Assembly (NCBI GenBank): GCA_004292675.1 | Contig: RDXO01000013.1 | Coordinates: forward strand, 1-64,000 | Origin: Alphaproteobacteria bacterium | GTDB taxonomy: Bacteria; Pseudomonadota; Alphaproteobacteria; Rickettsiales; UBA998 | DNA: 64,000 nucleotides | Direction of reading: 5' to 3' | In this document: in pieces, positions 37,887 through 57,904 of the stretch | Layout of the letters: each line of letters starts with the position of its first letter | Numbering within the stretch: the stretch's first letter is position 1 | Translations under genes and position numbers: made by a program | The notes under the pieces: model-generated | Database searches by the model: none | Seen by the model: the letters and a program-made list of their open reading frames with translations, nothing else | What the model was told of the DNA's origin: nothing

Positions 37887-40052
37887 ATGAAGGATTTTTT
37901 TAATCGCATTAATATATCGCGCAAGTTTACGATTCTTGTCTTATGCGCGTCTGTGCTTGCTTCGGTGATTGCTACAACATGTAGCGTGTTACTCATCCGT
38001 TCGGATTTGACGGAGGAGGCAGAAGCAATACTCAAAACCGTGTCATCCATTAAACATAAAGAAATCACTCTTTATTTGGAGAAGATTCGCAATGATGTGA
38101 TCAATAATGCCCAAAGCGAGCATGTGGAACATGCGGCGCAGCAATTTTCCGAGGCGTGGAGTGCCTTGAGCGTAGAGGGCGGACAAACAAAGATATTAAA
38201 AGACCTCTATATCAATAATGTTACCCTTTCAGAACCTTTGCCCATAGGCAAGAAAGATCAGCTTTATGATGCAAAAGACGGTTCGTCATACTCGCAGGTG
38301 CATAAAAAATATCATCCTTGGTTTCATCATTTTCTACAATCGAACGGTTATTATGATATTTTTATCTTTGATACGCATGGCAATCTTATTTATTCCGTGT
38401 TCAAAGAACCTGATTTTGCAACGAACATGATTTCGGGTGAATATAAAGATACCGATCTTGGGAAAGCATATCGCACCGCCATGGAGCTAGCCAAAGGGGA
38501 AGTCGCATTTTTTGAATTACAAGCCTATGCACCAAGCAATGGAGCAGCAGCAAGTTTTATTGCCACACCTATTTTTGATGGTGAACGCCGTATCGGGGTA
38601 TTAGCCTATCAGATGCCCAATGGTAAGATTCAAGAAATGGTCGATCTTAGCAAGGATGCGGGTGTAACCACACAATCCTATCTTGTGGGAGGTGATGGGA
38701 AGTATCTGACGAATTTGAAACTCTCTGATGGAACATATAGTGATGATATGCTTAAGACAAAGGCAGATAAGCAAGTCACAGCATTGATTGAACAGGGAAA
38801 AAATGCTGAAATGATGGTGTTTGAAACGGTCAATAAAGCGGGGCATGATGCCATGGTAAGTGTGGCAGTTCTGGAAATTTTAGGGAAAAAATTTGGCTAT
38901 GTCATTGAAAAAGAACGTGATGAGATTTTAGAGCCTATTGTCGATCTGCAAATTATTTCGTATACTATTGCGTTTGTTGTGGCGTTGGGCATTGCAGGCT
39001 TTGGGTATATGCAGGCAAATAATATTGCGCGCCCTCTCACAGACATAGGTGATGCCTATGATAAGTTGAATAATCATGAACTTGAACATGAGATTCCCCA
39101 TACAGAGCGTCTGGATGAGGTTGGATTACTTGCGCGTTCAGCCGTGGTGTTCAAACGGCATATCCAAGAAAATATGGCGCAAGAAGAGAGCATGAAACAA
39201 GCGCAGCTTGATCTTGCCGATCGCTTTGAAGTGGAAATTAAGGGGTTTGTCTCTATGGTAGCAGAGGCGGCGGCGCAACTTGCTCATGCCGCGCAAGATG
39301 TGGCGACAACCGTTGGCAAAACTACAGATACATCGATGGGTGCATCCCATGCAGCGGAAGATACCGCACAAAATGTGCATTCTGTCGCACGAGCTGTAGA
39401 GCAACTTTCTTCCTCAGTGCGTGATATTTCTTCGCAAATGCAACGCTCGAATGATTTAGTGAATGAATCCGTGCGCCGCGCCGAAACAGCAGATGTTCAT
39501 GCGCAATCGCTTAGTATTGCAACGAATAAGGTGCGTGAGGTGATAGAATTTATTTCTGAAATTGCAGGACAAATTAATTTGCTTGCTCTTAATGCCACCA
39601 TCGAATCTGCACGTGCGGGTGAGGCTGGAAAAGGATTCGCAGTCGTAGCAAATGAGGTTAAAAGTCTTGCAAATCAAACGGATAAATCGATTGTTGATAT
39701 TGCGCGTGTTATAGATGAAATGAATGGCGCATCGAATAATATCGTACATTCTCTTACGTCGATCAAAGATTCTATTCGTAATATTGATTCTTCTAGTCGA
39801 TCCATTTCTAATTCCGTGCAGCAACAAATGCAGACAACCAACCTTATTGCCCAAAATATGCAAACCGCATCTGAAGGGACGGGGCTTATCAGTGAAGGCT
39901 TACATGAGGTGCGCGTTATGTCCGCAGAAGCAGATCAGTCTGCAGGGCAGATTCTGGACGCATCGCACCAGCTATCACGCCAAGCAGAACAGTTGAGCTT
40001 TCAAGTGGATTCATTCCTGCATAGGTTACGCAATGGAAATGGTGGAGGATAG
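37887..40052 (+). CDS. Transmembrane methyl-accepting chemotaxis protein
   Basis: 721 residues. Helix 1 at about 14-34, a periplasmic Cache-like sensor (about 35-350; [17 protein letters not shown] and [28 protein letters not shown]), helix 2 at about 355-375, HAMP (about 376-430), then the signalling domain with the hairpin tip [40 protein letters not shown] (about 557-596). It senses an external ligand and signals through CheA/CheW, not encoded here. The first 57 nt upstream hold no clear promoter. Confidence 0.95.
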
Positions 40053-40102
40053 CGGAAGCCATAGTAAACTTAAAAAAACACTTGCTTGATAAAAAAAAGA
40101 AT

Positions 40103-40116
40103 GCTAACTATAGTAT
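40103..40116 (+). promoter_or_regulatory. C-box-like operator before the MT-A70 methyltransferase
   Basis: GCTAACTATAGTAT, 16 nt before the ATG at 40132. The identical 14-mer lies, inverted, upstream of the controller gene (41738-41751). ACTATAGT is the palindromic core expected of a controller-protein half operator. Confidence 0.7.
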
Positions 40117-40131
40117 TCAAAGCGAGGAATC

Positions 40132-40857
40132 ATGAACAAAACAGCTTTACTAGATCTTTTTGGAGAAACTCAACAGCCAGAAGAAACTATTAATCCGCAC
40201 AAGTTAACGGGTTATCGTATTTACAATGCAGAGCAAAAACGCAGAACCAAACGTAATGATCTGCCTGAGCTGTATCCGGATCTACCAGAAGAAAAATATG
40301 ATATTATATATGCAGATCCACCATGGGATTATGGCGGAAAATTGCAGTTTGATAAGTCTAGTGCAAAAGCTGAAAAAATGGATTGGGATAAAAACATTTT
40401 CATTAGTTCCGCAAACTTTAAGTACCCAACTTTGAAGATGGAACAATTAAAGAAAATACCACTACTTGAAATAGCAAAAGATGATTGTTTATTGTTTATG
40501 TGGGTTACTAATCCTCACCTCGCTCAAGGTATAGAACTTGGTCAACATTGGGGGTTTCAATACAAAACAGTTGCGTTTGTCTGGGATAAGATGATTCACA
40601 ATCCAGGTAAATACACAATGTCGTATTGCGAAATGTGTTTGGTTTTTAAGCGAGGAAAAATTCCTTCTCCAAGAGGTACAAGAAATGAAAAGCAGTTGGT
40701 GCGCTCACCCAGAGGTGATCACAGCGTTAAGCCCCAAGAAATAAGAGATGCTATTCACAGAATGTTCCCTGAGCAGAAAAGAATTGAGTTGTTTGCAAGG
40801 TGTAACCCAAAAGACTGGGATGTGTGGGGACTTGATGTCAGAGAAGAGTTTGAGTAG
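40132..40857 (+). CDS. Adenine-N6 DNA methyltransferase, MT-A70 type (M of MunI-like system)
   Basis: 241 residues. The DPPW catalytic motif (62-65; YADPPWDYGG) and MT-A70 fold landmarks (LFMWVTNPHLAQGIELG; YCEMCLVFKRG; RSPRGDHSVKPQEIRDAI) define the class that contains M.MunI. Paired with a convergent MunI-like nuclease, it should methylate the inner adenine of CAATTG and protect the host. Base composition is lower in GC than the neighbours, consistent with acquisition by transfer. A C-box lies in its promoter. Confidence 0.9.
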   Translation: MNKTALLDLFGETQQPEETINPHKLTGYRIYNAEQKRRTKRNDLPELYPDLPEEKYDIIYADPPWDYGGKLQFDKSSAKAEKMDWDKNIFISSANFKYPTLKMEQLKKIPLLEIAKDDCLLFMWVTNPHLAQGIELGQHWGFQYKTVAFVWDKMIHNPGKYTMSYCEMCLVFKRGKIPSPRGTRNEKQLVRSPRGDHSVKPQEIRDAIHRMFPEQKRIELFARCNPKDWDVWGLDVREEFE

Positions 40858-40866
40858 AAAGCAAGT

Positions 40867-41469
40867 CTATTTTTCAAGAAGTGGTGAAATGCACTCATCA
40901 AAATGCTTAAAAAGCAAATCGGGATCGGGTGCTTTTCGCCAAAAGAAAAAATGATTGATGTGCTTCCCGTACCAGAATGTCACTTCTCGTACCCTGCAAG
41001 GGTCACGACTAATATCACCCAAAAAGACTGTCCAGAACGGTAAGGCAGGTTCTTGAATTCCGCTTTTTTCTCTAAGTGCAGCCGTAAGTCCTGGCGTAAA
41101 AAACTTACAAGATCTCTCATGAGCGTTGCCTCTGCCATCGGAGCGTTTTTTGCCTTCTATCCATCCATCTTGTCTCTTCACTTCAATGTAGATTGTTTTT
41201 CCAGTTTTTCCGTTCTTTATGGCGTAATCAGGAAATACACCATGTCTTGTTATTGGTTCGTTTGGGTTATAAATTTCTCTAATAACAGCCTCGGACAATG
41301 GAACGGTAACATAGATGTTTTGAAAATCTTTTGGCTTCGGAATAATCGAATATTCTGTTCCCTCGAATACTTTTGAGAAGCAATCAAAAAATGCATTTTC
41401 AGCTATAGTGGCATTATTGCCTCCATAGTCTTGCCATTTACGCCTAATTCTATTGTGGTCACTTCCCAT
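40867..41469 (-). CDS. Type II restriction endonuclease, MunI family
   Basis: 200 residues, against 202 for MunI. From memory of the MunI sequence, similarity extends over nearly the whole chain: FPDYAIKNGKTGKTIYIEVKRQDGW carries the PD-(D/E)XK site (Asp81, Glu96, Lys98); GRGNAHERSCKFFTPGL (112-128) corresponds to the DNA-recognition segment; PFWTVFLGDISRDPCRVREVTFWY follows. Predicted target C^AATTG. It is convergent with its methyltransferase (9-nt gap) and its start is overlapped by the controller gene by 11 nt, so C and R form one transcript. Confidence 0.92.
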   Translation of the reverse strand: MGSDHNRIRRKWQDYGGNNATIAENAFFDCFSKVFEGTEYSIIPKPKDFQNIYVTVPLSEAVIREIYNPNEPITRHGVFPDYAIKNGKTGKTIYIEVKRQDGWIEGKKRSDGRGNAHERSCKFFTPGLTAALREKSGIQEPALPFWTVFLGDISRDPCRVREVTFWYGKHINHFFFWRKAPDPDLLFKHFDECISPLLEK

Positions 41470-41698
41470 CTATGATGCCCTTTAAAATGTCTATTAGATT
41501 GATTTCAAGAGCTACGGAAAACCTCACCAGTGTTAGTATAGTAATATTTTTCTCGCCACGTTCTACCATCCCGATATATGTACGATGCACGTTGGCGATT
41601 GCAGCTAACTCTTCCTGAGAAATAGCTCTCTCTAAGCGTAAATCTCTTATTCGCAGCCCTAACCTTTTCAGTATGTCTTTGTCATTCTTAGATTTCAT
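41459..41698 (-). CDS. XRE-type controller protein of the restriction system
   Basis: 79 residues, one helix-turn-helix domain (about 14-68): RLGLRIRDLRLERAISQEELAAIANVHRTYIGMVERGEKN. This is the size and type of C proteins that delay nuclease expression until methylation is complete. It overlaps the nuclease start and has two operator-like sites just upstream (41724-41751). Confidence 0.9.
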   Translation of the reverse strand: MKSKNDKDILKRLGLRIRDLRLERAISQEELAAIANVHRTYIGMVERGEKNITILTLVRFSVALEINLIDILKGIIDGK

Positions 41699-41723
41699 AA
41701 GTCATTTCAAAATATCACATGAT

Positions 41724-41751
41724 GACCATAGATCTACATACTATAGTTAGC
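41724..41751 (-). promoter_or_regulatory. Double C-box upstream of the controller gene
   Basis: On the minus strand: GCTAACTATAGTAT (41751-41738), 3 bp, then GATCTATGGTC (41734-41724). Two spaced palindromic half-operators match the usual C-box arrangement, in which occupancy of the first activates and of both represses. The left box equals the one before the methyltransferase. Confidence 0.7.
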
Positions 41752-41819
41752 TTTTTGCCTCTCGCTATGTATCTGAGTAAAATTTTCTCTGGAGAAAGAT
41801 TTTTCCGTTTTTTTTACAA

Positions 41820-41897
<78 letters not shown>

Positions 41898-56059: not shown

Positions 56060-57196
56060 ATGATACAATTAAAGCAACGTACATTTGAATCGATGCAACT
56101 GGAAAATCCATCCTACCTAGACTCTGAACTTATTACGTATATCGGAAACAAGCGTAGTTTGCTGCCCTTCATTAGTAAGGGGGTTGATCTAGTCAAGCAT
56201 CGCCTTGGAAAAGATCGCCTCAAGTTTCTTGACCTTTTTGCAGGAAGTGGTGTGGTATCTCGTTTCATGAAAATGCACAGCGAACGTATGGTATGTAATG
56301 ATCTGGAAGATTATTGTTCTATAATAAATACGTGTTATCTTTCGAATAGTTCAGAGTATGATCACGAGGAATTACGCTATCATTTGGATTGCTTGCACGA
56401 TGCAATCTCACGAGATTGGCGACGAGGTTTTATTGCAGAACTCTACGCACCGCAAAGTGACGCTGATATTAGAGAAGGTGAGCGGGTATTTTATACCCGT
56501 GCTAATGCCGAATTTATTGATACGGCACGGCAGCATATTGAGAATATACCCGAACCTATCAGAATGTTCTATTTAGCCCCGCTTCTTGTGCAAGCATCCA
56601 TTCATAATAATACGGCAGGGGTGTTCAAAGGTTTTTACAAAAATCGTCAAGGAATAGGTGCGTTTGGTGGTGAAGGAGCGCACGCCCTCAGCCGTATTCT
56701 TGGGGCGATCACGCTGCAACTTCCGACTCTTTCCAATTTTGAAACCTCCGTGAGCATCACACAACAAGATGCCGTAGCGTTTGCACGCGAACAGACGGAG
56801 TCTTTTGACCTTGTCTATATGGATCCTCCGTATAATCAGCACCCATATGGATCGAACTATTTCATGCTCAACCTTATTGCGAACTATAAGCAACCCACTT
56901 CATGCAGCAGAGTCAGTGGTATCCCTGATGATTGGAATCGCAGCCCTTTTAACAAACCGAATAGTGCTAAAGATGCTTTATTTTCGATTATTTCAAACTT
57001 AAACGCTACGTTTTTTCTAATTTCCTATAACAGCGAAGGCTTTATAAAAAAGGATGAGTTCATTTCTGGGCTTGAGCATATGGGGAATCTTAGTACGCTG
57101 GAAACTCGCTACAATACATACAGAGGAAGTCGTAATTTAGATGGTAGAAATCCCTATGTAACAGAATATTTGTTTCTATTAGAAAAAAAAGGCTGA
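56060..57196 (+). CDS. Adenine-N6 DNA methyltransferase, D12 class (M of EcoRI-like system)
   Basis: 378 residues. TYIGNKRSLLPFI (27-38), SAM motif FLDLFAGSGVVSRFM (57-71) and catalytic DPPYNQHPYGSNYF (255-268) define the D12/alpha class, similar to FokI-type methyltransferases. It is 3 nt upstream of an EcoRI-like nuclease, so it should methylate adenine in GAATTC. As I recall, the canonical EcoRI partner is a different methyltransferase class with an NPPF motif, so this would be an unusual pairing. Starts 2 nt after rfbC. Confidence 0.88.
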   Translation: MIQLKQRTFESMQLENPSYLDSELITYIGNKRSLLPFISKGVDLVKHRLGKDRLKFLDLFAGSGVVSRFMKMHSERMVCNDLEDYCSIINTCYLSNSSEYDHEELRYHLDCLHDAISRDWRRGFIAELYAPQSDADIREGERVFYTRANAEFIDTARQHIENIPEPIRMFYLAPLLVQASIHNNTAGVFKGFYKNRQGIGAFGGEGAHALSRILGAITLQLPTLSNFETSVSITQQDAVAFAREQTESFDLVYMDPPYNQHPYGSNYFMLNLIANYKQPTSCSRVSGIPDDWNRSPFNKPNSAKDALFSIISNLNATFFLISYNSEGFIKKDEFISGLEHMGNLSTLETRYNTYRGSRNLDGRNPYVTEYLFLLEKKG

Positions 57197-57199
57197 GTT

Positions 57200-57904
57200 A
57201 TGTCAAAAAAAGATGATCTTAGGAAGCAGCGTGCTGGTACTATTATTAATGTAATATCGAACGTGCAGGAAAAAGAGCTTAATGTTGCTATAGAGCGTAT
57301 TGTGATCGCACTGAAGGATAAGTTTCCTAGTATAGAATTAAGGTTTGAACGTCAGTGGTTTTTACGTGATGTCGTGGATTTACTTAGAAAAAAGTTCCCT
57401 GAAGTTGATTTTATGTATTATCATCAAAACTCATCGATGAAACCCGATGGAGGTATTTTAAGTATTTGTGGAAATGATGGTCAGACTTTTCCTATATTAA
57501 TTACGGAAAAAAAGAATCAAGGCACTAATGACATTAGAGCTTTGGAAGGAAAATCAAAGCAAGCCAAAGGGAATGCGATTGAACGTCTTGGAAAGAATGT
57601 AATCGGTTTTAGAGCAGCACTCTTACATGAAGCAATATTCCCTTTTGTGTGTTTTGGTGATGGGTGCGATTTTAGTGATGACTCTAGTATCCTTGATAGG
57701 GTTGTGACGATTGCAATGTTTGGAAAATTAAACCATGAGTATCTTCATGATATTGATGGTAAATTCAATAGAGGTTCATTCTATTTTCGAGTTGAGCGTT
57801 GGACGGCAGATGAAATGTTTGAAATCGGTCTGGCGATTGCGACGAAGAGCGTTTTTTATTACTATTCAAAATATGGTGAAGAGAGTTTTCAAAATTTATC
57901 CTAA
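57200..57904 (+). CDS. Type II restriction endonuclease, EcoRI family
   Basis: 234 residues; EcoRI has 277. The resemblance, from memory of EcoRI, is in the active site NSSMKPDGGILSI...ITEKKNQG (Asp83, Glu103, Lys105; EcoRI NSSIKPDGGI, AEAKHQG) and in the recognition segment AKGNAIERLGKNV (122-134; EcoRI AAGNAIERSHKNI), plus FPFVCFGDGCDF (EcoRI FPYVLFLEGSNF). Predicted target G^AATTC. It is about 40 residues shorter, mainly after the active site. Codon use is AT-richer than the neighbours. No controller gene is visible. Confidence 0.9.
   Translation: MSKKDDLRKQRAGTIINVISNVQEKELNVAIERIVIALKDKFPSIELRFERQWFLRDVVDLLRKKFPEVDFMYYHQNSSMKPDGGILSICGNDGQTFPILITEKKNQGTNDIRALEGKSKQAKGNAIERLGKNVIGFRAALLHEAIFPFVCFGDGCDFSDDSSILDRVVTIAMFGKLNHEYLHDIDGKFNRGSFYFRVERWTADEMFEIGLAIATKSVFYYYSKYGEESFQNLS

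What the first reader, a model, noticed from the sequence alone, without database searches (positions are those of the whole stretch)
40103..41751. MunI-like restriction system with complete controller circuit
The nuclease is nearly the same length as MunI and keeps PD-x14-ExK and the GRGNAHER segment; the methyltransferase is MT-A70 type, like M.MunI; the controller gene overlaps the nuclease start. An identical 14-mer, GCTAACTATAGTAT, precedes both the methyltransferase and the controller, and a second box GATCTATGGTC precedes only the controller, so the regulatory logic can be read from sequence.
Basis: partly seen in the sequence, partly recalled or inferred. Interest (0 to 1): 0.6.

Follow-up and report, generated by a model that had tools for sequence, protein, structure and literature searches.

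The report
MunI-like restriction system with controller circuit
This is a three-gene bacterial DNA-cutting and DNA-marking defence system of the known MunI kind, with a built-in timer protein whose binding sites can be seen in the sequence; it is a good new member of a known kind, and it sits between short repeats of a tRNA end, which suggests it was inserted there.

Summary
Window 40103-41751 holds an intact Type II restriction-modification system: an MT-A70 methyltransferase (40132-40857 +) convergent with a controller gene (41459-41698 -) that overlaps a MunI-family nuclease (40867-41469 -). The nuclease matches R.MunI (1d02) at E 1.6e-58 and Pfam RestrictionMunI at E 6e-81. The 14-mer GCTAACTATAGTAT occurs exactly twice in 64 kb, once before each transcription unit. 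It belongs to an 18-mer operator found before related controller genes in Helicobacter, viral contigs and, with two changes, an Oligoflexia genome. The copy before the methyltransferase covers the -10 of a 10/12 promoter. The two boxes before the controller are 15 bp apart, as in Esp1396I. Best reading: MunI enzymes under Esp1396I-type control, inferred from sequence.

New here: a 19-nt repeat (18/19) of the tRNA-Ala 3' end flanks the cassette exactly, so it was probably inserted.

CAATTG is nearly absent genome-wide (9 in 1.6 Mb, about 750 expected), but this is not diagnostic: the sister species, with no MunI nuclease detected, avoids it equally, and some 25 other six-base palindromes are avoided too. 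That broad avoidance is unexplained and may be more interesting than the finding itself.

The parts
40038..40056 (.). Distal direct repeat AATGGTGGAGGATAGCGGA; includes the stop of the chemotaxis gene; 17 nt identical to the tRNA-Ala 3' end of related genomes
   Evidence: the repeat finder D2, 18/19; tRNA ends of relatives
40086..40114 (+). Promoter of M: TTGATA - 17 nt - TATAGT (10 of 12)
40103..40116 (+). Operator box O_M, GCTAACTATAGTAT, covering the M -10
   Evidence: boxes also before M in L158 and L156
40132..40857 (+). M: MT-A70 type adenine methyltransferase, 241 aa, DPPW motif
   Evidence: PF05063 E 6e-21; PADLOC MTase_II E 1e-59
40867..41469 (-). R: MunI-family PD-(D/E)xK restriction endonuclease, 200 aa
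   Evidence: PF11407 E 6e-81; 1d02 E 1.6e-58; Foldseek 1d02 E 2e-14
41459..41698 (-). C: controller protein, 79 aa, HTH; overlaps R start by 11 bp
   Evidence: C.BclI, C.AhdI, C.Esp1396I by phmmer; PADLOC Control_protein
41711..41719 (-). Possible extended -10 of the C/R promoter (TGTGATATT), no good -35
   Evidence: read from sequence; inference
41724..41734 (-). Operator box O_R, GATCTATGGTC (presumed weak, repressing site)
   Evidence: 15-bp centre spacing to O_L as in Esp1396I
41738..41751 (-). Operator box O_L, GCTAACTATAGTAT, followed by GTAG
   Evidence: conserved upstream of C in L002, L003, L158
41818..41836 (.). Proximal direct repeat AATGGTGGAGCATAGCGGA, nearly all inside the tRNA-Ala 3' end
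41820..41895 (-). tRNA-Ala (GGC), probable insertion target
   Evidence: ARAGORN

Best explanation
A horizontally acquired Type IIP restriction-modification cassette of the MunI family. M methylates adenine in CAATTG and R cuts unmethylated CAATTG. Control is of the Esp1396I type. On entry, M is made at once from a near-consensus promoter and protects the chromosome, while C/R starts from a weak promoter. C dimers fill O_L and activate C and R. As C accumulates it fills O_R and shuts off C/R, and it fills O_M on the M -10 and lowers methyltransferase. The cassette was probably inserted at the 3' end of tRNA-Ala, leaving a 19-bp target-like duplication. Shown: genes, motifs, boxes, promoter hexamers, repeats, homologous loci. 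Inferred: specificity, activity, order of operator filling, insertion mechanism.
For: R matches MunI at E 1.6e-58 over nearly the whole protein and PF11407 at E 6e-81. The active site and the GRGNAHER segment are invariant in homologues. M is MT-A70. C matches solved controller proteins. Same gene layout in Helicobacter and viral contig L158. The 18-mer operator is identical in Helicobacter although the proteins are only 46-61% identical. A box also stands before M in L158 and L156. The 15-bp box spacing equals Esp1396I, where C represses M at O_M and the units converge (PMC4041747). Viral contigs with the nuclease but no methyltransferase have no CAATTG in about 20 kb each (0/6.9, 0/7.6, 0/10.3 expected), whereas contigs with the methyltransferase keep it. 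The flanking repeat lies at the cassette borders.
Against: No methylome or cutting data. The Helicobacter system has no box before M, so M repression is not a fixed part of the family. CAATTG shortage is shared with a sister species lacking a detected MunI nuclease and is one of many. Other carriers show weak or no CAATTG avoidance (Helicobacter 0.38, Oligoflexia 0.97). L168 and L169 look like close relatives (same identity to the query), and L170 avoids palindromes generally, so the phage evidence is modest. No integrase lies in the cassette, and no empty site was found.
Confidence: 0.82

Rival explanations
1. MunI-family system whose sequence specificity has drifted, for example to another AATT-centred site, with the same regulation.
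For: R is only about half identical to MunI; specificity can change at such distances.
Against: The segment GRGNAHER is identical to MunI, including the arginine (MunI R115) that, from general knowledge of the MunI structure, reads the outer base pair. CAATTG is among the most depleted hexamers while GAATTC is only mildly short (0.55).
Confidence: 0.1
2. C acts as in most C-controlled systems, on C/R only, and the box before M is a passive remnant with no regulatory effect.
For: Helicobacter and L159 lack a box before M.
Against: The box covers the -10 of the best promoter-like site before M. Other systems, L158 and L156, have such a box too.
Confidence: 0.12
3. The CAATTG shortage in this genome is caused by this system.
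For: 9 sites in 1.6 Mb against about 750 expected.
Against: The same-genus genome without a detected MunI nuclease has 0/96 in sample and 20 in 1.7 Mb; some 25 other palindromes are also very short.
Confidence: 0.15

Closest known systems
MunI restriction-modification system (R.MunI, PDB 1d02; PF11407)
   Same: Nuclease family, length, PD-x14-ExK, GRGNAHER; from general knowledge also the MT-A70 type methyltransferase
   Different: About half the residues of R differ; the regulatory sequences of MunI itself were not available to compare
Esp1396I controller circuit
   Same: C/R operon convergent with M, two boxes 15 bp apart before C, one box on the M promoter, R-T-Y recognition residues of C
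   Different: Box sequences AACTATAGTA and ATCTATGGTC instead of GACTTATAGTC; the C loop has E-K where Esp1396I has S45-R46; unrelated enzymes
Helicobacter didelphidarum MunI-like locus (L002)
   Same: Same gene order, same 18-mer operator; R 46%, M 61%, C 47% identical
   Different: No box before M; second box TATAGTATG
Viral contig L156 system
   Same: Same C clade and operator, convergent M with a box at its start
   Different: Different nuclease (342 aa) and a different type of methyltransferase

Membership tests
MunI restriction endonuclease family (PF11407) | Full-length profile match above the curated cut-off | tested here: met
   271 bits against cut-off 25, positions 1-191 of 193
MunI restriction endonuclease family (PF11407) | PD-x14-ExK active site and GRGNAHER recognition segment | tested here: met
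   D81, E96, K98 and 112-119
MunI restriction endonuclease family (PF11407) | Cuts C/AATTG | not testable with these tools
   Only indirect evidence: CAATTG depletion and zero sites around the lone nuclease in viral contigs
Type IIP R-M system | Cognate methyltransferase next to the nuclease | tested here: met
   MT-A70 M, convergent; same pair of families in L002, L158, L159, L160
C-protein controlled R-M | HTH controller gene upstream of R | tested here: met
C-protein controlled R-M | Symmetric C boxes upstream of C | tested here: met
   O_L with dyad ACTATAGT, O_R 15 bp away
Esp1396I-type circuit | C box on the promoter of a convergent M gene | tested here: met
   O_M over -10 TATAGT; PMC4041747
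Esp1396I-type circuit | Measured repression of M, and activation then repression of C/R | not testable with these tools
   needs reporter or binding assays
tRNA-targeted integrative element | Direct repeat of the tRNA 3' end at both borders | tested here: met
   18/19 repeat
tRNA-targeted integrative element | Integrase gene in the element | tested here: not met
   only M, R and C lie between the repeats

The most novel reading that the evidence does not exclude
The C protein and its 18-mer operator GCTAACTATAGTATGTAG form a portable control module, conserved across bacterial phyla and viral contigs and combined with unrelated nuclease and methyltransferase pairs, and here travelling in a compact tRNA-targeted cassette.
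Probability: 0.4. Interest if true: 0.45.

Novelty: new member of a known kind. Interest (0 to 1): 0.33.

Why it matters
R.MunI is a textbook relative of EcoRI, and few natural relatives turned up in large genome collections. This locus and the others found here (L002, L003, L158-L160) give a set in which an operator can be recognised by conservation across phyla. That makes a predicted controller circuit directly testable and suggests that M repression, called unusual in Esp1396I, recurs. The host genome's broad loss of restriction sites is a separate puzzle worth its own study.

Tried and rejected
CAATTG depletion as proof of specificity: rejected after the sister genome and the other palindromes were counted. 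An arsenal of resident methyltransferases as the cause of broad avoidance: only a few found with three Pfam families, but a D12-class enzyme in the window shows that this inventory is incomplete, so this stays open. Empty insertion site in relatives: the chemotaxis gene and purF do not lie beside the tRNA-Ala loci checked. Structure model of R: mean pLDDT 60 with 3 sequences, not used beyond the Foldseek hit to 1d02. No MunI relative in plasmids. The phage record MT836404 has the R end at a contig edge beside a long repetitive surface-protein-like ORF. Relaxed 17-mer operator search in viral contigs: 9 loci, of which only 3 are next to a C gene. Sorokin 2009 (C-box survey) and the MunI structure paper are not held.

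Full report
What is there. The three ORFs claimed are intact and placed as stated. M (40132-40857 +, 241 aa) is an MT-A70 protein with DPPW. R (40867-41469 -, 200 aa) matches Pfam RestrictionMunI at 271 bits and MunI 1d02 over residues 6-196 at E 1.6e-58. C (41459-41698 -, 79 aa) matches C.BclI, C.AhdI and C.Esp1396I and PADLOC control proteins. M and C/R converge with 9 bp between the M and R stops; C and R overlap by 11 bp.

Catalytic and recognition residues. D81, E96 and K98 give PD-x14-ExK, and residues 112-119 are GRGNAHER. All are invariant in the Helicobacter, Oligoflexia and phage homologues. The alignment places the arginine of GRG on MunI R115; that this residue reads the outer base pair is from general knowledge. 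The solved MunI chain shows A where the window has D81, consistent with an inactive D83A mutant having been crystallised (general knowledge).

Operators. GCTAACTATAGTAT is exact at 40103-40116 (+) and 41738-41751 (-), and the next-best site in 64 kb has 2 mismatches. Before M it covers the -10 of TTGATA-17-TATAGT. Before C it is followed by a second box whose centre is 15 bp away, the same distance as in the Esp1396I operator. The C/R promoter shows a possible extended -10 (TGTGATATT, 41711-41719) and no good -35; the leader to the C start would be only a few bases (inference). In Esp1396I the C and R genes converge on M, and C represses M at O_M, described as unusual (PMC4041747; operator sequences in PMC3758141). 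R35 and T36 of C.Esp1396I are kept here, while R46 is replaced by K in an E-K pair, which could fit the different box sequence.

Comparison. The genome scan found three relatives. In Helicobacter didelphidarum (L002) C-R and M converge in the same way, and GCTAACTATAGTATGTAG is identical, although C is 47%, R 46% and M 61% identical. Oligoflexia L003 has GCTAATTTTAGTATGTAG. L004 has broken R and M. IMG/VR gave seven more nucleases. L158 is a full convergent system (R 66%, M 74%) with GCTAACTCTAGTATGTAG before C and GATAACTATAGTAT before M. L159 has M convergent with R but no C was found. L160 has M divergent from C-R. L161-L163 are nucleases with no M or C found nearby; in L161 the neighbours are replication-type genes. 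An exact search for the 18-mer in viral contigs gave two hits, both directly before a C gene of this clade; one (L156) belongs to a system with a different nuclease and methyltransferase and also has a box at the M start. In the four C promoters found without using the operator as bait (window, L002, L003, L158), the box is always followed by ATGTAG or its overlap GTAG, while the M boxes are not followed by GTAG; what the GTAG does is not known.

Insertion. AATGGTGGAG[G/C]ATAGCGGA occurs at 40038-40056 and 41818-41836, 1780 bp apart, bracketing the cassette. The second copy is the 3' end of tRNA-Ala. TGGTGGAGGATAGCGGA, in the distal copy, is identical to the tRNA-Ala 3' end of several relatives. 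This points to integration at the tRNA end. No integrase is present, so either it was supplied from elsewhere or another mechanism made the duplication. Among 88 related genomes only this one has the nuclease, and 1 of 398 across the phylum scores above the cut-off, so horizontal arrival is likely.

Specificity evidence from genomes. CAATTG is absent from the window and occurs 9 times in 1.6 Mb, against about 750 expected from a second-order model (170.6 per 364 kb). But the same-genus genome G001 (87% complete), without a detected nuclease or MT-A70 gene, has 20 in 1.7 Mb and 0 of 96 in sample. In both, 21-27 six-base palindromes are below 0.15 of expectation, against 1-3 in samples of family mates, and 27% of palindromic REBASE specificities are below 0.15 in G000 against 3-7% in three family mates. 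CAATTG depletion therefore fits but does not prove MunI specificity. A cleaner hint is that viral contigs with the lone nuclease have no CAATTG in about 20 kb each, while contigs with the methyltransferase keep it; the numbers are small and not all independent.

Verdict. A real, ordinary-in-kind but well-preserved MunI-family system under probable Esp1396I-type control. The added value lies in the cross-phylum operator, the recurrence of the M box, the tRNA repeats, and the warning about using site avoidance as proof.

Noticed in passing
whole window; G000 and G001 samples: Extreme genus-wide avoidance of about 25 six-base palindromes and degenerate Type II sites (GCATGC, GTGCAC, GGCGCC, RGCGCY, GDGCHC, CCWGG and others), much weaker in family mates; few methyltransferases found with three Pfam families.
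   Followed up: partly
56060-57904 +: A second Type II system in the same window: D12-class methyltransferase followed by an EcoRI-family nuclease (PF02963 E 4.5e-18; EcoRI chain E 1.1e-14) with GNAIER, in a low-GC patch; GAATTC is only mildly avoided.
   Followed up: partly
L161 3001-3600, L162, L163: MunI-like nucleases without M or C nearby, in L161 among replication-type genes, on 56-203 kb viral contigs; about 20 kb around each has no CAATTG.
   Followed up: partly
L156 5202-7390: The same controller clade and operator precede a system with a different 342-aa nuclease and a different methyltransferase, with a box at the M start.
   Followed up: partly
window 41733-41751 (-) and C promoters of L002, L003, L158: GTAG follows the C-promoter box in all four unbiased cases but not the M boxes; function unknown, could be a start-stop or a promoter or operator element.
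   Followed up: no
L004 3431-4379: A decayed MunI-like system in a Desulfovibrionaceae genome, with both R and M broken.
   Followed up: no
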